From an uncultured Clostridium sp. (GTDB lineage: Bacteria; Bacillota_I; Bacilli_A; RF39; UBA660): a stretch of DNA of 46,439 bases. Each line of letters opens with the position of its first letter. Within the stretch, counting starts at the first letter, position 1. The position numbers and the translations under genes are program-made. The notes beneath the pieces are model-generated. The model made no database searches and had not been told where the DNA came from. It saw only the letters and a program-made list of their open reading frames with translations. Positions 13,770 to 23,090 of this stretch are shown here, piece by piece. The DNA lies in assembly GCA_947427095.1 (NCBI GenBank), contig CANEGO010000011.1, positions 1-46,439 on the forward strand, in the 5' to 3' direction.

Positions 13770-14461
13770 GAAATAAGTATAAGTTAAGAGCAAGCTATGT
13801 TCCTAATTTTGGATATCAATTTGAATTAGATGAAGGGACAATGGACGGTTTGAATTTTAGTATTGATGAAGATGATAATCTTACGTTGCATTATGGTGAT
13901 AGTACTTATCCTGATTATGAAGAAAATAAAAAACGAAGATTAACGGTAATTTATAATAACTTTTTTAAAAATTTATTACCGGACATTTCCATAGAGGAAC
14001 TAGAACGTGAAACATTACATATTGATGGTTTATTTGAAATGGTTGAAAATTATATCATCGATCGAGATATGTATGTTGGAATAGACAAGTTTGATATTTT
14101 GCTAGAAGAGAACCCTTATAGAACTTTTTATGATGAAGATACTGGTAAAATATCATATTATATTAAAGATTACCGTATAAAAGATGAAACAGGAATAGTA
14201 ATTTTACCTGACGGAACATTTTTCACATGTTTAAGTACTAAGTTTACAAATCTTGATGAAAAGCAAAAAGATTTAAGAAAGCAAATAATAAAAGAATTTA
14301 TATATGATGAATTAAAGGTGAAAATTGATTTTGGAAGAAAAGCAGATGGTAAACTTTTTTCAACAAAAACTCTTTATGAGAGAGCTTATTCTTCCTTATT
14401 GATTAATAAAAAGCAAACTTCATATAGCGATTCTGAAAAAAATTCAAAATTAAAAAAATAG
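13766..14461 (+). CDS. Unknown acidic protein coupled to MBL hydrolase
   Basis: Encodes 231 residues, rich in Asp, Glu, Tyr and Lys, without a signal peptide or membrane segment. It overlaps the preceding stop by four bases and is therefore translationally coupled to it. No motif or family is recognised. The C-terminus is a polar Ser/Lys tail. The context suggests a partner of the anchored hydrolase, but this is inference only. Confidence 0.55.
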   Translation: MRNKYKLRASYVPNFGYQFELDEGTMDGLNFSIDEDDNLTLHYGDSTYPDYEENKKRRLTVIYNNFFKNLLPDISIEELERETLHIDGLFEMVENYIIDRDMYVGIDKFDILLEENPYRTFYDEDTGKISYYIKDYRIKDETGIVILPDGTFFTCLSTKFTNLDEKQKDLRKQIIKEFIYDELKVKIDFGRKADGKLFSTKTLYERAYSSLLINKKQTSYSDSEKNSKLKK

Positions 14462-14498
14462 TTATATTTTTAATAAATTGAAGGATAGAAGTATTTTT

Positions 14499-14840
14499 AT
14501 GAAAATTAAACGAATTTTAAGAAATGGAACTTGGGTATTTTTTATAGCAATGGGAATACAGGCTTTAACATTTAAAATTCCATATGTAACAGTATTGGGT
14601 GCGTATTTTTTAATTACTAGTTTTATATTTTTTCCGTGGTTAGATAAAACGCTTAACTTAATAGGGATAAAACTTTCTAGTAAAAATAAGTGGTTTTTAG
14701 TAGTTATAAATCTTTTTGTTTCAGCTTATTTAATTAAATCGGATGAAACAAACTTTTATAAATGTATTTTACCAATAACCCTAATGATTTTAATATGGGT
14801 GATGACAATTTTTAATGTTAAAAGAAAACTTAATAAATAA
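14499..14840 (+). CDS. Small four-helix membrane protein, unknown
   Basis: Encodes 113 residues from ATG 14499; the in-frame TTG 14478 is less likely because AAGGAT lies after it. Four hydrophobic segments (about 13-30, 34-50, 60-75 and 85-105) with short loops fill nearly the whole protein. No family is recognised. It ends the operon begun by ppa; no clear terminator is seen before the NAD promoter. Confidence 0.55.
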   Translation: MKIKRILRNGTWVFFIAMGIQALTFKIPYVTVLGAYFLITSFIFFPWLDKTLNLIGIKLSSKNKWFLVVINLFVSAYLIKSDETNFYKCILPITLMILIWVMTIFNVKRKLNK

Positions 14841-14912
14841 AGAAAAAATAGGTGATGATATCTTTTTAAGATTCAGCACTTTTTAAAATTATAAAAAATA
14901 TTAAAAAAAGTG

Positions 14913-14941
14913 TTGACAAATTCGCATGTTATTAATATAAT
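14913..14941 (+). promoter_or_regulatory. Consensus promoter of the NAD operon
   Basis: TTGACA (14913-14918), a 17-base spacer and TATAAT (14936-14941) are a perfect sigma-A promoter. The start point is expected near 14948. The -10 box lies inside the first operator palindrome. Confidence 0.88.
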
Positions 14942-14952
14942 GTTAGTAACAG
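14926..14952 (+). promoter_or_regulatory. NAD operon operator 1
   Basis: ATGTTATTA (14926-14934), nine bases, then TAGTAACAG (14944-14952) form an inverted repeat with two mismatches. It encloses the -10 box, so occupancy would stop initiation. Arms and spacing equal those of operator 2. Confidence 0.75.
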
Positions 14953-14979
14953 ATGAGAAATCTGATAATTTTTTAAGTC

Positions 14980-15006
14980 ATGTTATTAATAAAATGATAA
15001 TAACAT
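14980..15006 (+). promoter_or_regulatory. NAD operon operator 2
   Basis: ATGTTATTA (14980-14988), nine bases, then TAATAACAT (14998-15006) form a perfect inverted repeat. It begins 54 bases after operator 1, about five helical turns, which suits cooperative binding. A second TATAAT (15006-15011) abuts it. The likely ligand is the NrtR-like protein at 22260-23090. Confidence 0.75.
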
Positions 15007-15045
15007 ATAATATGATAGGTATGAAAAAAAGGAGATGATGTTACT

Positions 15046-15102
15046 ATGATTAATTTAGTTAAGTGTAGCGTAATTAAAAAAGGTTCCCTGATATATTATT
15101 AA
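15046..15102 (+). CDS. Possible 18-residue leader peptide of the NAD operon
   Basis: AAAGGAG precedes ATG 15046 by 11 bases, and the frame ends at TAA 15100-15102. The peptide is Met-Ile-Asn-Leu-Val-Lys-Cys then a Lys/Ile/Tyr tail. It sits in the 275-base leader between the promoter and pncA. It might be a translated leader or a chance frame in AT-rich DNA; no attenuator hairpin with a T-run follows it. Confidence 0.3.
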   Translation: MINLVKCSVIKKGSLIYY

Positions 15103-15167
15103 ATAATTATGGAAAAACAATTTTTATTATTTTTGAAAATAATAAAAGAACTAGTTAGCTAACTAGA

Positions 15168-15194
15168 AAAAAATTTTAATTTATGATATTAACA
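15168..15194 (+). repeat. 27-bp repeat, copy 1, upstream of pncA
   Basis: This segment is identical to 15802-15828 except for one base. The second copy spans the stop codon of pncA, so this copy looks like the tail of a former duplicate of that junction. A perfect 16-bp palindrome (CTAGTTAG/CTAACTAG, 15151-15166) lies just before it. Confidence 0.6.
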
Positions 15195-15222
15195 GAAAGA
15201 TAAAAACAAAGGAGAGATAAAA

Positions 15223-15813
15223 ATGAAAAGAATAGAAGAAATTGAAAAAGCGTTAATCGTTGTTGATATGGTTAACGGATTCGTAAAGGAAGGAAATATG
15301 GCAACTCCTTATATGAAAGCTTTAATTCCGGTAATAGGAGAATTATTACAAGATTTTGAAAAAGATGAAGAAGGAATTATATTTATTAAAGAGTCACACG
15401 ATGAAAATTGTGCTGAATTTAATAAGTTTCCAGAACATTGTAAGGAGGGAACTTGGGAAGCAGAAATTATTGAAGAGTATGCACCATACGTTGATAATGC
15501 GTTAGTATTTAAAAAAAATACTACTATGTCAGTATTTGCGCCAGGTTTTATTGAAACACTTAGAAAAATGAAAAACCTAAAAAAGGTTATATTCGCAGGT
15601 GGTTGTACTGATATTTGTTCTATGGAAGCTGCGTTACCAACTATAAAATTCTTTGATAGTGAAAATAGAGATGTTGAAGTTATTTTTCCAATGAACGCAA
15701 ATGATACTTATGATGCACCAAATCACAATAGAGAAGAGTATAACGAAATGGCTTATAAATTTATGAAACAAGCTGGTATAAGTGTTGTAAAAAAATATAC
15801 TAAAAAATTTTAA
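15223..15813 (+). CDS. pncA: Nicotinamidase
   Basis: Encodes 196 residues of the isochorismatase-like fold. It deamidates nicotinamide to nicotinate, the first salvage step. The catalytic triad can be seen: Asp15 in IVVDMVNG, Lys97/98 in VFKKNTTMSV and Cys132 in GGCTDICS. Metal-site histidines are in KESHDEN and FPEHCKE. AAAGGAGAG lies before the ATG. First gene of the operon behind the two-operator promoter; pncB follows after 47 bases. Isochorismatases share the fold, but the NAD context settles the function. Confidence 0.9.
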   Translation: MKRIEEIEKALIVVDMVNGFVKEGNMATPYMKALIPVIGELLQDFEKDEEGIIFIKESHDENCAEFNKFPEHCKEGTWEAEIIEEYAPYVDNALVFKKNTTMSVFAPGFIETLRKMKNLKKVIFAGGCTDICSMEAALPTIKFFDSENRDVEVIFPMNANDTYDAPNHNREEYNEMAYKFMKQAGISVVKKYTKKF

Positions 15814-15828
15814 TTTGTGATATTAACA
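15802..15828 (+). repeat. 27-bp repeat, copy 2, between pncA and pncB
   Basis: This near-identical copy of 15168-15194 covers the last codons of pncA and part of the spacer before pncB. The single difference is G15817 against A15183. Confidence 0.6.
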
Positions 15829-15860
15829 AAATATAAATAAGAGAAAGAAGGAAAATAATT

Positions 15861-17351
15861 ATGGAAAAGAATAATAAAACGATGATGACAGATTTTTATG
15901 AATTAACAATGGCTCAAACTTATTTTGATGCCGGAAAGAAAGATGAAATAGCTTATTTCGATACTTTCTTTAGAAAAAATCCTTTTGAAGGAGGATACAC
16001 AATATCTAATGGTGTTGATAACATAATAGAATATATTAATAATTTTAAGTTCACAGAGGAAGATATTGAATATTTAAGAGAAACCGGTAGTTTTACTGAA
16101 GAATTTTTAGATTATCTTAAAGATATGAAATTTACTGGTGATATATATGCTGTTCCAGATGGAACACCAGTATTTCCAAATGAACCAGTAATTACTGTTA
16201 AAGCCCCTATTATAGAAGCTCAAATAATTGAAACAGCAGTGCTTGCACACTTTAATCATGGTTCACTTGTATCAACTGCTGCTAAAAGAATTACTAATGA
16301 GGTCAAAGGTATTCCAGTAATGGAGTTTGGTGCAAGAAGAGCAAGAGGCGTTGACTCAGCAATAGAAGCAAGTAAGTATGCTTACATAGGGGGTTGTGCT
16401 GGAACTTCAAATGTATATGCTGCTAAAAAATATGATATACCTGTAATGGGAACTATGGCACATAGTATGATTCAAAATTTTGACACAGAATATGAAGCAT
16501 TCATGGCTTATGCAAAGAGTAATCCGGATAATTGTGTATTCCTAGTTGATACTTATGATACTTTAAAAAGTGGTATTCCAAACGCAATTAGAGTAGCTAA
16601 GGAATATTTAATTCCAAATGGACACAAGTTTAAAGGTATTAGAATTGATAGTGGAGATTTAATTTACCTATCTAAAGCTGCCAGACAAATGATGGATGAA
16701 GCGGGATTCCCTGATGTAAAAATTTGCTTGTCAAATGGACTTAATGAATATAGCATTAGAGATTTTGCAAGTAAAGGTGCTGTAATTGATTCTATTGGTG
16801 CTGGTGATAACATTGCTGCTGCTAAAGAAAGAGTAGGTGGTGTTTACAAACTAGTTGCAATAGAAAAGGATGGGAAAATTATTCCAAAAGTAAAAGTATC
16901 TGGTGATACTGTTAAGACTACTAACCCTGGTTATAAGAAGGCATATAGATTTTATGATCAAGATACCCATAAAGTATTAGGTGATGTTATAACAACTTAC
17001 GATGAAGTTATTCCTAAGGATAAATATACACTTGTTGATGAACAAAATCCATGGAAGCAAACTTTAATTGAAGATTATTATGTAAGAGAGTTACAAGTTC
17101 CTATTTTTAAAGACGGAAAATTAGTGTATAACGAACCCAACATTCATGAGAGAAAAAAATACTGTGATGCCGAGTTTGCTACCCTTACTGACAGAATAAC
17201 CGATGTATCAAATCCTCATACTTATTATGTTGATTTAAGTGAGAAGGAAAAAGAGTTAAAAGAATATATGTTGTTTGAAGCAACTAAAAAGGCAGCTGAA
17301 ACAGCAATGGAAAACAATGGTTATGCAAAAACGATTGGAGGCAAAAAATGA
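15861..17351 (+). CDS. pncB: Nicotinate phosphoribosyltransferase
   Basis: Encodes 496 residues, the length of the Gram-positive type. It joins nicotinate and PRPP to nicotinate mononucleotide, usually with ATP hydrolysis through a phosphohistidine. Visible blocks are MMTDFYELTMAQTYF at the N-terminus, EFGARRARGVDSAIEASKYA, the phosphorylated-His loop GTMAHSMIQ (His201), the phosphate site GIRIDSGDLIYLS and the C-terminal Cys/Asp-containing KKYCDAEFATLTDR. The stop overlaps the Nudix start by four bases. Confidence 0.95.
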   Translation: MEKNNKTMMTDFYELTMAQTYFDAGKKDEIAYFDTFFRKNPFEGGYTISNGVDNIIEYINNFKFTEEDIEYLRETGSFTEEFLDYLKDMKFTGDIYAVPDGTPVFPNEPVITVKAPIIEAQIIETAVLAHFNHGSLVSTAAKRITNEVKGIPVMEFGARRARGVDSAIEASKYAYIGGCAGTSNVYAAKKYDIPVMGTMAHSMIQNFDTEYEAFMAYAKSNPDNCVFLVDTYDTLKSGIPNAIRVAKEYLIPNGHKFKGIRIDSGDLIYLSKAARQMMDEAGFPDVKICLSNGLNEYSIRDFASKGAVIDSIGAGDNIAAAKERVGGVYKLVAIEKDGKIIPKVKVSGDTVKTTNPGYKKAYRFYDQDTHKVLGDVITTYDEVIPKDKYTLVDEQNPWKQTLIEDYYVRELQVPIFKDGKLVYNEPNIHERKKYCDAEFATLTDRITDVSNPHTYYVDLSEKEKELKEYMLFEATKKAAETAMENNGYAKTIGGKK

Positions 17352-17935
17352 GAAAGGAAAAACTAGATGAATTGGAAATCATAATAGATGGTTTTAAGAC
17401 ATTAAAAAAAGAAAGGTTAAACAAAGAAGCCAGATTTATTAAAAGTGAAGTGTATTCTTGTTCTTTAAATAATGGTAAAATAATTACAAGGGAAAAAATA
17501 GTTAAAAATGGAAAAGATGGTAGTGCTGCTATCATCCTTCCTGTAACTTTAGAAAACAACGTAATATTAACGGTTGAACCAAGGGTGTTTTCTAAAAGAA
17601 CAGTTGGTATTGGTATTCCAGCAGGATACATAGAAGAAGGTGAAGATCCATACGTTGCAGCGTTAAGAGAACTAGAAGAAGAAACCGGATACGTTCCAAA
17701 TAAAATGATTAGCTTAGGCGGTTTTTATCAAGATATGGGCTGTTCATCAGCTTATAATGAAGCTTTTATAGCAATGGGTTGTGAAAAGAAAACAAACCAA
17801 CACTTAGATCCAGGAGAGTATATTAAGTATTTTGATTGTACTTATGAAGAGGCTCTTGAATTAATCGATATGGGCTATATAGAAGGATGTAACGCAATAA
17901 TAACTTTAGGAAGGGCTAAAAGGTACATGAAATGA
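17348..17935 (+). CDS. Nudix hydrolase, ADP-ribose pyrophosphatase type
   Basis: Encodes 195 residues with an intact Nudix box: the glycine in AGYIEEGEDPYVA starts it and RELEEETGY completes it. The preceding LTVEPRVFSKRTVGIGIPAG and following GGFYQDMGCSSAYNE fit the ADP-ribose pyrophosphatase (NudF-like) branch, which yields AMP and ribose 5-phosphate. In this operon it would recycle ADP-ribose released from NAD consumption or from the glycohydrolase encoded downstream. It overlaps both neighbours by four bases, so it is translationally coupled. Confidence 0.85.
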   Translation: MRKEKLDELEIIIDGFKTLKKERLNKEARFIKSEVYSCSLNNGKIITREKIVKNGKDGSAAIILPVTLENNVILTVEPRVFSKRTVGIGIPAGYIEEGEDPYVAALRELEEETGYVPNKMISLGGFYQDMGCSSAYNEAFIAMGCEKKTNQHLDPGEYIKYFDCTYEEALELIDMGYIEGCNAIITLGRAKRYMK

Positions 17936-18729
17936 TAAGTATAAAAGAAGGATTGAATAAAAAAATAAGTGATATTAACGTTAATAACTTTTACGTGGTT
18001 GCAGATTTTGATAAAACTATAACATCTAAAAAAAGTAATACTACCTTTTCTTTGTTTTCTAAAAGTGGTTTTTATCCTAAATCATATTTAGAAGAAAGAA
18101 ATAGAAACTATGATTATTATAGACCGCTAGAACTAGATCCTAAAATAGATAAAAAACAAAAATCTAGCATAACTAAAAAGTGGCAAACTGCTAGCTATCA
18201 ATTAATGCTTAAATATAATGTTAAAGAAAAAGATATAAAAAGAATACTAAACATTTCGGGAATGTTAACTTTAAGAGATGGTGCTAAAGATTTCATTAAG
18301 TTATTAAACGAAAAAAATATTCCTCTTATTATTAGCTCAGCTGGGATTGGAAATTTTATCAAAGAATTATTAGTATTAAATGATTGTTATTCAAATAACA
18401 TATTTATTAATGCAAATATGCTGGAATTTAAAGATGGGGTAATAATAGATAGCATTAAAGATATAATTCATAGCATGAATAAAAATAATATTGTTCTAAC
18501 AGAAGATTTTTCTGATAAAATAAAAGATAAGGACTTTACTATAATTATAGGTGATCAATTAAGTGATTTAGATATGGTAAGTAATTTACCATATGAAAAT
18601 AGTATTTCTTTTGGATTCTTAGAATCTAATATAAATGAAAATAGGCCCTTATTTAAAGATTCATTTGACGTAGTATTAGAGAATAATGCTTCGTTTGATG
18701 AAATAAGTAAAATATTAAAAATTAAATAA
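17932..18729 (+). CDS. HAD phosphatase related to pyrimidine 5'-nucleotidase (cN-III/UMPH-1)
   Basis: Encodes 265 residues. HAD motif I is VADFDKTITSKKSN (Asp25 and Asp27), motif II is in IISSAGIGNF near 135, and motif IV is IIGDQLSDLDMV near 205. The order, size and the tail IKDKDF...ENSISFGFL...FDVVLENNASFDEI match the cytosolic 5'-nucleotidase III family. Those enzymes remove the 5'-phosphate from pyrimidine, and in some cases nicotinate or nicotinamide, mononucleotides. Its place between ADP-ribose Nudix and nadE suggests NaMN or NMN as substrate, but UMP/CMP cannot be excluded. Confidence 0.72.
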   Translation: MISIKEGLNKKISDINVNNFYVVADFDKTITSKKSNTTFSLFSKSGFYPKSYLEERNRNYDYYRPLELDPKIDKKQKSSITKKWQTASYQLMLKYNVKEKDIKRILNISGMLTLRDGAKDFIKLLNEKNIPLIISSAGIGNFIKELLVLNDCYSNNIFINANMLEFKDGVIIDSIKDIIHSMNKNNIVLTEDFSDKIKDKDFTIIIGDQLSDLDMVSNLPYENSISFGFLESNINENRPLFKDSFDVVLENNASFDEISKILKIK

Positions 18730-18744
18730 GAAAAGAGGATTAAA

Positions 18745-19515
18745 ATGAAAAAAGAATTTAACGCGGAAGAAGAAACAAAAAAAGTTATCAAGTTTATAAG
18801 AGATTATTATGATAAAAATAATTTGGGTGGTGTGATAATCGGTATATCAGGTGGAAAAGATAGTGGTGTTGTAGCAGGGTTATTTACCAAAGCTTTAGGA
18901 AAAGAAAACGTAATAGGAGTTACTCTTCCATGCCATTCAAAAGACGAAGATAAAAGTCATGCAAAATTAGTTAGTGATTATTATGGCTTTCCTTTAATTA
19001 ACTTTGATATAACAGGTGTATTTGATAGTTTTAAAAATGAATTAGCTTCTTTAGGAGAATTTAAAGAGGAAGACTTAAAAAATAGTGACATAAATTTAAA
19101 ACCTAGACTTAGAATGGCAACACTATATTATTTGGCGGCTATGTACTCAGCTATTAATGGTAAAACATATTTGGTTTCAGGAACCTCTAATAAATGTGAA
19201 TTATACGTGGGTTACTTTACTAAAGGAGGGGACTCTGTTCATGATATTTCACCAATTGCGGATTTTACGGTTGAAGAAGTTATTAAAATAGGAGAGTATT
19301 TAAATGTTCCAAAAGAGGTCCTTTACAAAGCACCTAATGATGGTTTATCTAATCAAACTGATGAAGATAAGTTAGGAGTTAAATATAATGAAATAGCATC
19401 TTACATGAATGATAAAACTAGTGTAGATAAAATAGTTGCGGATAAAATAAGAAAATTACATGAAAATAATAAGCATAAGTTTAATATACCGACTTATAGA
19501 AAAGATGAAAACTAA
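18745..19515 (+). CDS. nadE: NAD synthetase, ammonia-dependent
   Basis: Encodes 256 residues without a glutaminase domain, so free ammonia (or an outside glutaminase) supplies nitrogen. The PP-loop GISGGKDSGVVAGLF is present near residue 34. SGTSNKCELYVGYFTKGGDS and the C-terminal FNIPTYRK are standard for the family. It adenylates nicotinate adenine dinucleotide and amidates it to NAD. A 15-base gap to the preceding HAD gene and 17 to nadD keep it inside the operon. Confidence 0.95.
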   Translation: MKKEFNAEEETKKVIKFIRDYYDKNNLGGVIIGISGGKDSGVVAGLFTKALGKENVIGVTLPCHSKDEDKSHAKLVSDYYGFPLINFDITGVFDSFKNELASLGEFKEEDLKNSDINLKPRLRMATLYYLAAMYSAINGKTYLVSGTSNKCELYVGYFTKGGDSVHDISPIADFTVEEVIKIGEYLNVPKEVLYKAPNDGLSNQTDEDKLGVKYNEIASYMNDKTSVDKIVADKIRKLHENNKHKFNIPTYRKDEN

Positions 19516-21398: not shown

Positions 21399-22190
21399 GT
21401 GATAAAAAGTTATAGAATCTTTAGAAATGATAACGATAAATCAACCAAAGTAGAACAAGTTATTAACGAGAAAATGAAACTAAATGGATTTATTTATGAT
21501 GATTCTAATTATGATTTAGCTATTGCAATTGGTGGTGATGGTTCTTTTTTAAGGATGATTAAACAAACTAACTTTAATAGTGATATACTATATGTTGGAA
21601 TAAATGCTGGAACTTTAGGTTTTGCGCAAGAAGTATCGTTAGAAGAAGTAGATGATTTTATAGAGGAGTTAAAAAACAATAACTATAAAATAGATAGTAT
21701 TGGAGTACAAGAAACTAAGGTGGTAACAGAAGATGTTGATTCTTACTTTTATTCTTTAAATGAAATTGTAATTAGACAAGAAGATTTAAATACTATTGCG
21801 CTAGATATTTTCGTTGAAGATGAATTGTTAGAAAGCTTTGTAGGTGATGGAATTTTAATATCAACGTCATTTGGGTCTACTGCTTATAATTTAAGCCATG
21901 GTGGAAGTATAGTTTATAATACTTTTCATACTCTTCAAATAACTCCTGTTGCGCCTCTTAATAATAAATCATATCGTAATTTACTTAATTCTGTTATTTT
22001 GCCTGAAAATAAAAGGGTAACTTTAATACCAAAAAGAAGTAAAGATATATTGATTACGGTTGATGGAGAAAATAACGTTTATAAAGATGCAAATAAGATA
22101 GAAACAGTAGTAGATAAAAAAAGAATAAAATGTTTAAGAAGAAAAGATTATGATTTTTCTAAAAAGATAAATGAAAAGTTTTTAAAATAG
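21399..22190 (+). CDS. nadK: NAD kinase
   Basis: Encodes 263 residues from GTG 21399, behind AAGGAAGGTGATT. The catalytic GGDGSFLRM motif is at about residue 48 and is followed by GINAGTLGFAQE. The conserved NEIVIRQ and the loop SFGSTAYNLSHGGSIV are present. It phosphorylates NAD to NADP, last step of the operon. A strong terminator overlaps the stop, so the transcript ends here and the NrtR-like gene is a separate unit. Confidence 0.95.
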   Translation: MIKSYRIFRNDNDKSTKVEQVINEKMKLNGFIYDDSNYDLAIAIGGDGSFLRMIKQTNFNSDILYVGINAGTLGFAQEVSLEEVDDFIEELKNNNYKIDSIGVQETKVVTEDVDSYFYSLNEIVIRQEDLNTIALDIFVEDELLESFVGDGILISTSFGSTAYNLSHGGSIVYNTFHTLQITPVAPLNNKSYRNLLNSVILPENKRVTLIPKRSKDILITVDGENNVYKDANKIETVVDKKRIKCLRRKDYDFSKKINEKFLK

Positions 22191-22209
22191 TTACACGAGT
22201 AACTATTTT
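22184..22209 (+). terminator. Terminator of the NAD operon
   Basis: An 11-base arm AAAATAGTTAC (22184-22194) and GTAACTATTTT (22199-22209) enclose ACGA. The tail is C followed by TTATTATTTT. Confidence 0.85.
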
Positions 22210-22228
22210 CTTATTATTTTAAATATGT

Positions 22229-22234
22229 TATAAT
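22229..22234 (+). promoter_or_regulatory. Extended -10 promoter of the NrtR-like gene
   Basis: TATAAT at 22229-22234 is preceded by TG at the extended -10 position. No copy of the 27-bp NAD operator is seen here, so autoregulation is not evident. Confidence 0.6.
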
Positions 22235-22259: not shown

Positions 22260-23090
22260 ATGGACGGAAAATTATACAATTCAGAAGAAGAGTTTTTAAA
22301 AGAGTATGACTCTAGTATGTTTGAAAAATTATCTATGACAACGGATATTTTGATAATGAGTGTATCTAGTGAAGAAACTGGAAATTATAGAAAACTAACC
22401 GAAAAGAAGTTTAGTATCTTATTAGTTAAGAGGGATAACTATCCGTTTAAGGATAAATGGTGTTTGCCAGGTGGTTTTGTTGGTATTGATGAAACACTTG
22501 ACGAGGCTGCAAAAAGAATATTAAAAAACGAAACGAACTTAAAGGATATTTATATTGAACAGTTATATACTTTTAGTGGGATCGATAGAGATCCTAGAAT
22601 GAGAGTTGTATCAACTTCTTATATGGCATTAGTGGATAAAAATAGATTAAATGATAAATTATGTGCTAATGCATCTTGGTTTAACGTTTTTATCTTAGAA
22701 GATGAGAAATCTTATCACGTAACTTTAGATAATGGAAATGAACAAATAAAGTTTATAGTTGGTAAAAAGCTAAGAGACTTAACAACTGATAGATATGATT
22801 TTAAAGTAATTAAAAATGATAAATTAGCCTTTGATCACCCACTTGTTATAATAAGTGGTCTTGAAAGGCTTAAGAACAAGATAGAGTATACTGATATAGT
22901 ATTTAACATGATGCCTGAGTATTTTACTTTAGGAGAATTACAACAAGTATATGAAGTAATATTAGGTAAAAAATTACTTGATCCAGCGTTTCGTAGAATA
23001 ATAGCTAATAAAGTAGAAAAAACCAACAAAATGAAAACCGGAGAAGGACATAGGCCATCAGTGTTATTTAGATATAAAAACAAGAAATAA
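22260..23090 (+). CDS. nrtR: NrtR-like Nudix-related transcriptional regulator
   Basis: Encodes 276 residues. A Nudix-like domain spans about 20-160 and a C-terminal winged helix (YFTLGELQQVYEVILGKKL, then FRRIIANKVEK) ends the protein, the NrtR arrangement. The Nudix box is degenerate: after LPGGFVGIDETLDEAAKR the catalytic Glu pattern is replaced by ILKNETNL, as in NrtR proteins that bind ADP-ribose without hydrolysing it. NrtR represses NAD genes and is released by ADP-ribose or a related ligand. It stands directly after the NAD operon, whose promoter carries two matching palindromes. The gene symbol rests on domain order and context. Confidence 0.85.
   Translation: MDGKLYNSEEEFLKEYDSSMFEKLSMTTDILIMSVSSEETGNYRKLTEKKFSILLVKRDNYPFKDKWCLPGGFVGIDETLDEAAKRILKNETNLKDIYIEQLYTFSGIDRDPRMRVVSTSYMALVDKNRLNDKLCANASWFNVFILEDEKSYHVTLDNGNEQIKFIVGKKLRDLTTDRYDFKVIKNDKLAFDHPLVIISGLERLKNKIEYTDIVFNMMPEYFTLGELQQVYEVILGKKLLDPAFRRIIANKVEKTNKMKTGEGHRPSVLFRYKNKK

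What the first reader, a model, noticed from the sequence alone, without database searches (positions are those of the whole stretch)
14913..15006. Two phased 27-bp palindromic operators control a nine-gene NAD operon
ATGTTATTA-N9-TAATAACAT is perfect at 14980-15006, and a two-mismatch copy with the same 9-9-9 geometry at 14926-14952 covers the -10 box of a perfect TTGACA-17-TATAAT promoter. The sites start 54 bp apart, about five turns. Directly after the operon sits a Nudix-like protein with a degenerate catalytic box and a C-terminal winged helix (NrtR pattern). Seeing the palindromes is direct; that NrtR binds them is inference. The 27-bp length and the nine-base spacer seem longer than the NrtR sites I know.
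Basis: partly seen in the sequence, partly recalled or inferred. Interest (0 to 1): 0.75.

Follow-up and report, generated by a model that had tools for sequence, protein, structure and literature searches.

The report
NrtR repressor sites before NAD operon
The two DNA palindromes are very probably the docking sites of NrtR, a known type of NAD-sensing repressor whose gene follows the operon, and the same sites recur before NAD genes in dozens of related uncultured gut bacteria: a well-supported but essentially ordinary regulatory switch with a sequence motif of its own.

Summary
The palindromes are real and at the stated coordinates. They are conserved operators of the NrtR-family (Nudix plus winged-helix) repressor encoded just after the nine-gene NAD salvage operon. 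A profile built from relatives' sites finds 155 copies in 80 NrtR loci, none in a shuffled control, and 119 of them lie beside NAD genes. In a 117-genome scan, strong sites (E ≤ 1.1e-4) occur in exactly 15 genomes. All 15 carry a close NrtR ortholog plus pncB, and five of them were held out of the profile. The family lacks the rival NAD regulator NiaR. One site almost always (59 of 62 loci with sites) sits on a TTGACA-17-TATAAT promoter with the -10 box at its centre. Others lie in the leader, often next to the ribosome-binding site. This window holds four sites (two strong, two weak), all in this operon.

Corrections: the "27-bp, nine-base spacer" is not unusual. The spacer is itself conserved, the informative span is about 25 bp (what the AraR dimer of this family covers), and GTT...AAC sits where the Mycobacterium NrtR box has it. 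Helical phasing is not strict (53-58, 40-42 and 46-50 bp all occur). Binding and the effector (ADP-ribose expected) remain untested. Known kind; taxon-specific motif.

The parts
14913..14918 (+). -35 box TTGACA of the NAD operon promoter
   Evidence: (12/12 match); conserved 13 bp upstream of the promoter-type operator in 59 of 62 loci with sites
14936..14941 (+). -10 box TATAAT, in the centre of operator O1
14926..14952 (.). operator O1 (ATGTTATTAATATAATGTTAGTAACAG), overlaps the -10 box; proposed NrtR site
   Evidence: (E 3.8e-6, best match in the genome), conserved in relatives
14980..15006 (.). operator O2 (perfect palindrome ATGTTATTAATAAAATGATAATAACAT), in the leader; proposed NrtR site
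   Evidence: (E 1.6e-5); counterparts in the leader of relatives' operons
15183..15209 (.). weak operator-like copy O3 just upstream of the pncA ribosome-binding site
   Evidence: E 0.013; 19.1 bits; part of a segment repeated at 15802-15837
15817..15843 (.). weak operator-like copy O4 between pncA and pncB; the relative L037 has a strong copy here (5956)
   Evidence: E 0.019; 17.8 bits
15223..15813 (+). pncA-like nicotinamidase (isochorismatase family)
   Evidence: PF00857
15861..17351 (+). pncB, nicotinate phosphoribosyltransferase
   Evidence: NF006695, above its cut-off
17348..17935 (+). Nudix hydrolase, probably ADP-ribose/ADP-compound pyrophosphatase
   Evidence: PF00293; weak NudE and AdpP-family matches
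17932..18729 (+). UMPH-1-type HAD 5'-nucleotidase; not found in the operons of the two closest relatives
   Evidence: (PF05822)
18745..19515 (+). nadE, NAD synthetase
   Evidence: TIGR00552
19533..20066 (+). nadD, NaMN adenylyltransferase
   Evidence: TIGR00482
20067..20951 (+). ADP-ribosylglycohydrolase family protein
   Evidence: PF03747
20911..21381 (+). pncC/CinA-type NMN amidohydrolase
   Evidence: TIGR00199, PF02464
21399..22190 (+). nadK, NAD kinase; last gene of the operon
22186..22207 (+). hairpin AATAGTTAC-ACGA-GTAACTATT (-7.5 kcal/mol) followed by a T-rich run: possible terminator separating nadK from nrtR
   Evidence: not found by the stricter consensus scan
22226..22234 (+). possible extended -10 (TGTTATAAT) of a separate nrtR promoter, within a weak operator-like sequence (13.4 bits)
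   Evidence: inference
22260..23090 (+). NrtR-family repressor: Nudix-like domain with degenerate Nudix box plus C-terminal NrtR winged helix
   Evidence: (PF21906 NrtR_WHD 64.2 bits, PF00293)

Best explanation
The palindromes are operators of the NrtR-family repressor encoded at 22260-23090. A dimer binds a palindrome of about 25 bp, consensus wTGTTATTAAYANAATRTTAATAACAw. Bound at O1, whose centre is the promoter's -10 box, it should block RNA polymerase from the single strong promoter. A second dimer at O2 in the leader (and perhaps weaker ones at O3 and O4) should strengthen repression by cooperation or as a roadblock. When NAD is consumed, ADP-ribose, the effector of most studied NrtR proteins, would bind the catalytically degenerate Nudix domain, move the winged helices out of register with the DNA and release the operon for NAD salvage (pncA-pncB-nadD-nadE, pncC, nadK). 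Shown here: the sites, their conservation, their link to NAD genes and to the NrtR ortholog, the protein family and the promoter overlap. Inferred: binding, repression, ADP-ribose as effector, and cooperation between sites.
For: Sites confirmed and unique in the genome at 2 or fewer mismatches. The protein has NrtR_WHD and Nudix domains. Its predicted fold (pLDDT 81) matches a full-length Enterococcus Nudix/wHTH protein (2fml, Z 23.9), AraR (Z 22) and Shewanella NrtR bound to a 27-mer DNA (3gz6, Z 21.0). Its Nudix box G-X5-E-X7-RILKNETNL lacks two of the REUXEEXGU glutamates (signature quoted in PMC4666351). In 80 NrtR loci from GTDB genomes there were 155 sites of 19 bits or more against 0 in Markov-shuffled sequence; 119 lie beside NAD genes, most often pncA (86). 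Of 62 loci with sites, 59 have one lying on a TTGACA/TATAAT promoter with the -10 in its centre, and 50 have tandem sites. Among 117 genomes, E of 1.1e-4 or better occurs in exactly 15, all with an NrtR ortholog of 60% identity or more and pncB; five of these gave no site to the profile (5/5 against 0/101, p about 1e-8 ignoring phylogeny). Genomes with only distant paralogs lack strong sites. No NiaR in this family. G005 appears to have lost pncB, strong sites and most of nrtR together. A similar promoter-overlapping site precedes nrtR-pncB in another family with a 52-53% NrtR (L021, L022).
Against: No binding, footprint or expression data. The protein scores 154 bits against a cut-off of 400 in NCBIfam's NtrR model, so it is not a close ortholog of the studied ones. 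Its WHD also matches AraR_C weakly (31.6 bits). Relatives with about 47% NrtR (G033, G054) have the NAD operon or part of it but no such sites, which could be operator drift or a different regulator. 18 of 80 loci had no site of 19 bits or more, many on short contigs. The genome also encodes two NrtR-like paralogs (51% and 34%).
Confidence: 0.9

Rival explanations
1. Another regulator (an NrtR-like paralog elsewhere in the genome, NiaR, or an unrelated factor) binds the palindromes, and the adjacent NrtR acts elsewhere.
For: The genome has paralogs at C2:64489 (51%) and C1:129k (34%).
Against: The 51% paralog turned up only in G000 and G058, whereas strong sites occur in 15 genomes. The 34%-type paralogs occur in many genomes without strong sites. 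Neither paralog's neighbourhood looks like an NAD operon. NiaR's 3H domain is absent from this genome and, apart from one sub-threshold match, from its family. nrtR and the sites travel with the same operon.
Confidence: 0.06
2. The repeats act in RNA: the leader copies form stem-loops beside the ribosome-binding site that tune translation or mRNA stability, possibly as an uncharacterised NAD-responsive element.
For: Many leader copies end 11-25 bp before the gene match, and the arms could pair in RNA.
Against: The promoter-type copy lies around the -10 box and is mostly not transcribed, yet it is as well conserved (59 of 62 loci). Stems would be 7 bp of nearly pure A-U. No Rfam family matches. 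In leader copies the outer C is often G (position +11 G 71%), which breaks the pair instead of keeping it.
Confidence: 0.03
3. Chance palindromes in an A+T-rich genome, kept only because the first overlaps the promoter.
For: Relaxed matches (3 mismatches in 18, or 2 in the 14-base core) are at control level genome-wide.
Against: Only these two match at 2 or fewer mismatches in 18; 155 sites against 0 in shuffled relatives' loci; exact genome-level link with NrtR; copies away from the promoter are conserved too.
Confidence: 0.01

Closest known systems
NrtR family repressors of NAD metabolism (Shewanella oneidensis, Synechocystis, Mycobacterium smegmatis, Streptococcus)
   Same: Nudix-like sensor with degenerate catalytic box plus C-terminal winged helix; gene beside NAD genes; odd-length palindrome at the promoter; controls NAD salvage or synthesis. 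The Mycobacterium box GTTTTCGA-N7-TCGAAAAC (PMC6800001) has GTT...AAC at the same distance from the centre (+/-9 to 11) as here.
   Different: The operator sequence differs from the Mycobacterium and Streptococcus motifs; several tandem sites per operon; the target here is one nine-gene salvage operon; effector untested.
AraR of Bacteroides thetaiotaomicron (NrtR family, arabinose-responsive)
   Same: Best Foldseek match; the dimer covers 25 bp; tandem operators 3 or 42 bp apart before the main operon (PMC4666351).
   Different: Controls arabinose genes with a GTGT-type 21-bp motif and L-arabinose effector; no NAD context.
NadQ (COG4111) of Agrobacterium
   Same: Regulates NAD biosynthesis with a related C-terminal HTH (PMC5343134; 7q94).
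   Different: N-terminal domain described as not similar to that of NrtR; different motif (ttATRCTCannntGAGYATaa); the protein here has a clear Nudix domain match.
NiaR (3H domain) repressor of niacin salvage in Bacillota
   Same: Same physiological role, controlling niacin salvage genes.
   Different: Unrelated protein; its 3H domain was not found in this genome.

Membership tests
NrtR (Nudix-related transcriptional regulator) | N-terminal Nudix-like domain and C-terminal NrtR winged helix | tested here: met
   PF00293 49.0 bits (cut-off 21.1) and PF21906 NrtR_WHD 64.2 bits (cut-off 27); fold matches 3gz6 at Z 21.0, rmsd 2.3 A over 201 residues
NrtR (Nudix-related transcriptional regulator) | Nudix catalytic signature impaired | tested here: met
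   RILKNETNL in place of REUXEEXGU; not restored in any of 17 orthologs/paralogs aligned. Loss of activity itself not assayed
NrtR (Nudix-related transcriptional regulator) | Genomic link to NAD metabolism genes, conserved in relatives | tested here: met
   nrtR lies beside NAD genes in this genome and in most of the fetched relatives
NrtR (Nudix-related transcriptional regulator) | Conserved palindromic operator at regulated promoters | tested here: met
NrtR (Nudix-related transcriptional regulator) | Matches curated NtrR equivalog model above cut-off | tested here: not met
   NF050029 154.1 bits against a cut-off of 400; that narrow model describes close orthologs, so this speaks against equivalence to those, not against family membership
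NrtR (Nudix-related transcriptional regulator) | Protein binds the operator; binding relieved by ADP-ribose (or NAD in NdnR) | not testable with these tools
   needs gel shift or footprint
NiaR | 3H domain (PF02829) | tested here: not met
   no match in the genome (93% complete)
AraR (NrtR-family sugar regulator) | Linked to arabinose genes and GTGT-type operator | tested here: not met
   NAD genes, different motif

The most novel reading that the evidence does not exclude
A lineage-specific NrtR variant with a multi-site control scheme: one operator centred on the -10 box and others at about -41 and +55 from it, often abutting the ribosome-binding site or lying between genes of the operon, so that dimers may both block initiation and stall elongating polymerase, and with the regulon extended to PRPP synthetase in some relatives.
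Probability: 0.2. Interest if true: 0.45.

Novelty: new member of a known kind. Interest (0 to 1): 0.3.

Why it matters
It assigns a regulator, an operator motif and a predicted regulon to NAD salvage in a large group of uncultured gut Bacilli with small genomes. The motif, present beside NAD genes in dozens of genomes, allows regulon mapping in organisms that cannot be cultured and gives a clear gel-shift target.

Tried and rejected
Rfam search of 14400-15900: nothing. Relaxed genome-wide pattern (23-bp core, up to 2 mismatches): 87 against 62 in control, so not informative. Next-best genome match of the site model outside the operon, C3:4400, lies inside a coding gene and is judged chance. 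The original NrtR regulon paper (Rodionov 2008) was not obtained: the one look-up tried used a DOI one digit off from the one later seen in a reference list (gkn047), so its absence from the library was not fully checked, and its motif logos could not be compared. Strict helical phasing as a design rule: rejected, since spacings of 53-58, 46-50 and 40-42 bp all occur. The 9-9-9 geometry as drawn: replaced, because positions -4, -2, +2 and +4 are conserved as well, also in copies outside the promoter. Strong-site absence in G009 is uninformative: its contig begins inside nadE.

Full report
Observation. The sequence bears out the description exactly. The perfect site is at 14980-15006 and the two-mismatch site at 14926-14952. 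TTGACA is at 14913-14918 and TATAAT at 14936-14941, so the -10 box sits in the middle of the first site. The shuffled expectation for up to 3 mismatches in the window is 0.59 against 4 seen. In the whole genome (1.28 Mb, 27 contigs, 93% complete) only these two sites match with two or fewer mismatches. The promoter is the only 12/12 sigma-70 match in the region.

The operon and the protein. The nine genes are pncA-like, pncB, a Nudix hydrolase, a UMPH-1 HAD phosphatase, nadE, nadD, an ADP-ribosylglycohydrolase, pncC and nadK. They are packed closely or overlap. A hairpin with a T-rich tail follows nadK (22186-22207, -7.5 kcal/mol; the stricter scan does not list it), and TGTTATAAT precedes nrtR, so nrtR may have its own promoter (inference). 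The protein at 22260-23090 has Nudix and NrtR_WHD domains. Its Nudix box reads RILKNETNL where active enzymes have REUXEEXGU (signature from PMC4666351). The AlphaFold model (pLDDT 81) aligns over nearly its full length with 2fml, AraR and Shewanella NrtR bound to a 27-mer.

Comparative test. NrtR orthologs of 60-91% identity were found in 15 other genomes of the same family, mostly among the same NAD genes. Their NAD promoters carry the same palindromes, typically TTGACA...TGTTATTAATATAATGTTAATAACA, plus extra copies upstream or downstream. A profile was built from those sites and run over 80 NrtR loci fetched from GTDB genomes with organism names (uncultured Bacilli and Erysipelotrichaceae/Tenericutes MAGs). 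It gave 155 sites of 19 bits or more in 62 loci and none in Markov-shuffled sequence. 119 lie beside one of the operon genes. Of the remaining 36, many precede PRPP synthetase genes, one pair precedes a glutamine-dependent NAD synthetase, and others precede small ORFs without a Pfam match.

Link to the regulator. A sequence-only model of the site was run over 117 whole genomes. Matches of E 1.1e-4 or better occur in 15 genomes: G000, G006, G013, G020, G022, G032, G045, G047, G052, G053, G056, G057, G058, G062 and G067. All carry the close NrtR ortholog and pncB. The one other genome with a full-length close ortholog, G009, has a contig that starts inside nadE, so the upstream region is not held. 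Five of the 15 (G032, G047, G052, G056, G057) contributed no site to the model (5/5 against 0/101, p about 1e-8; relatedness ignored). Class-level genomes with pncB but no NrtR show no strong sites at pncB. NiaR's 3H domain is absent here. G005 keeps pncC, nadK and a 54-residue nrtR remnant but has no pncB and no strong site, consistent with joint loss. In another family a 52-53% NrtR precedes pncB and has a related, promoter-overlapping site (L021, L022).

Site architecture. 59 of 62 loci with sites have one on the promoter with the -10 in the centre. Others lie in the leader, often ending 11-25 bp before the gene match, or 41 bp upstream. Spacings cluster at 53-58 bp (38 pairs) and 40-42 bp (13), with 46-50 bp (9) and others, so a fixed helical phase is not maintained. 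The window has two more weak copies at 15183-15209 and 15817-15843, the second matching a strong copy in L037 (5956). Base conservation runs from about -12 to +12 and includes the supposed spacer (positions -4, -2, +2 and +4 also in non-promoter copies).

Is the length odd? No. In this family the AraR dimer covers 25 bp, and both AraR and SoNrtR were crystallised with 27-bp DNA (PMC4666351). The Mycobacterium box GTTTTCGA-N7-TCGAAAAC is 23 bp (PMC6800001) and places GTT and AAC 9-11 bp from the centre, exactly as GTTATTA-N9-TAATAAC does. The Streptococcus motif differs (21 bp, PMC6800001). NrtR motifs are known to vary by taxon (PMC4666351, PMC5343134).

Mechanism. Apo-NrtR at O1 would cover the -10 and block polymerase; O2 would add to it. 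ADP-ribose, which releases Shewanella, Synechocystis and Streptococcus NrtR from DNA (PMC4666351, PMC12735969), would be the signal of NAD breakdown. NAD itself is the effector in Corynebacterium NdnR (PMC4666351). The operon's Nudix and ADP-ribosylglycohydrolase genes fit an ADP-ribose signal, but this is inference.

Verdict. A real, conserved and well-supported NrtR regulon with its own motif in uncultured gut Bacilli. Known kind; moderate to low interest.

Noticed in passing
window 15046-15210: Between O2 and pncA lies a leader of about 200 bp with a short ORF behind a strong AAAGGAG (MINLVKCSVIKKGSLIYY) and two A+T-rich hairpins, one containing CTAGTTAGCTAACTAG. L037 has a similar arrangement with a different short peptide; L035 lacks the insert. 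Its 3' end is repeated at 15802-15837.
   Followed up: partly
window 17932-18729: A UMPH-1-type 5'-nucleotidase gene sits inside this operon but was not found in the operons of the two closest relatives (L035, L037).
   Followed up: partly
117 relatives: Within this family pncB occurs in only 16 of the genomes searched, all with an NrtR of 47% identity or more; most members, including many of the same genus, have neither. How they obtain NAD was not examined.
   Followed up: no
L104:4513, L106:6624/6672, L109:6885/6934, L120:1861, L126:7338/7352, L127:2320/2369, L144:1530/1586, L154:5173/5220, L159:100/146: The same operator, often in tandem, precedes genes for PRPP synthetase (L106 confirmed by Pfam, the rest by sequence likeness), suggesting that the co-substrate of PncB is controlled by the same regulator.
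   Followed up: partly
L117:2017-2421, L150:1021-1443, L161:1479-1910, L167:4217-4627: Small proteins (134-143 aa) that look alike and have no Pfam match where tested lie just downstream of the operators in several relatives: a possible unknown member of the NAD regulon.
   Followed up: no
G000:C2:64489-65247 (L053:6472-7251): A second NrtR-like protein (51% identical, shorter N-terminus), followed by an unknown 222-aa gene; its targets are unknown.
   Followed up: partly
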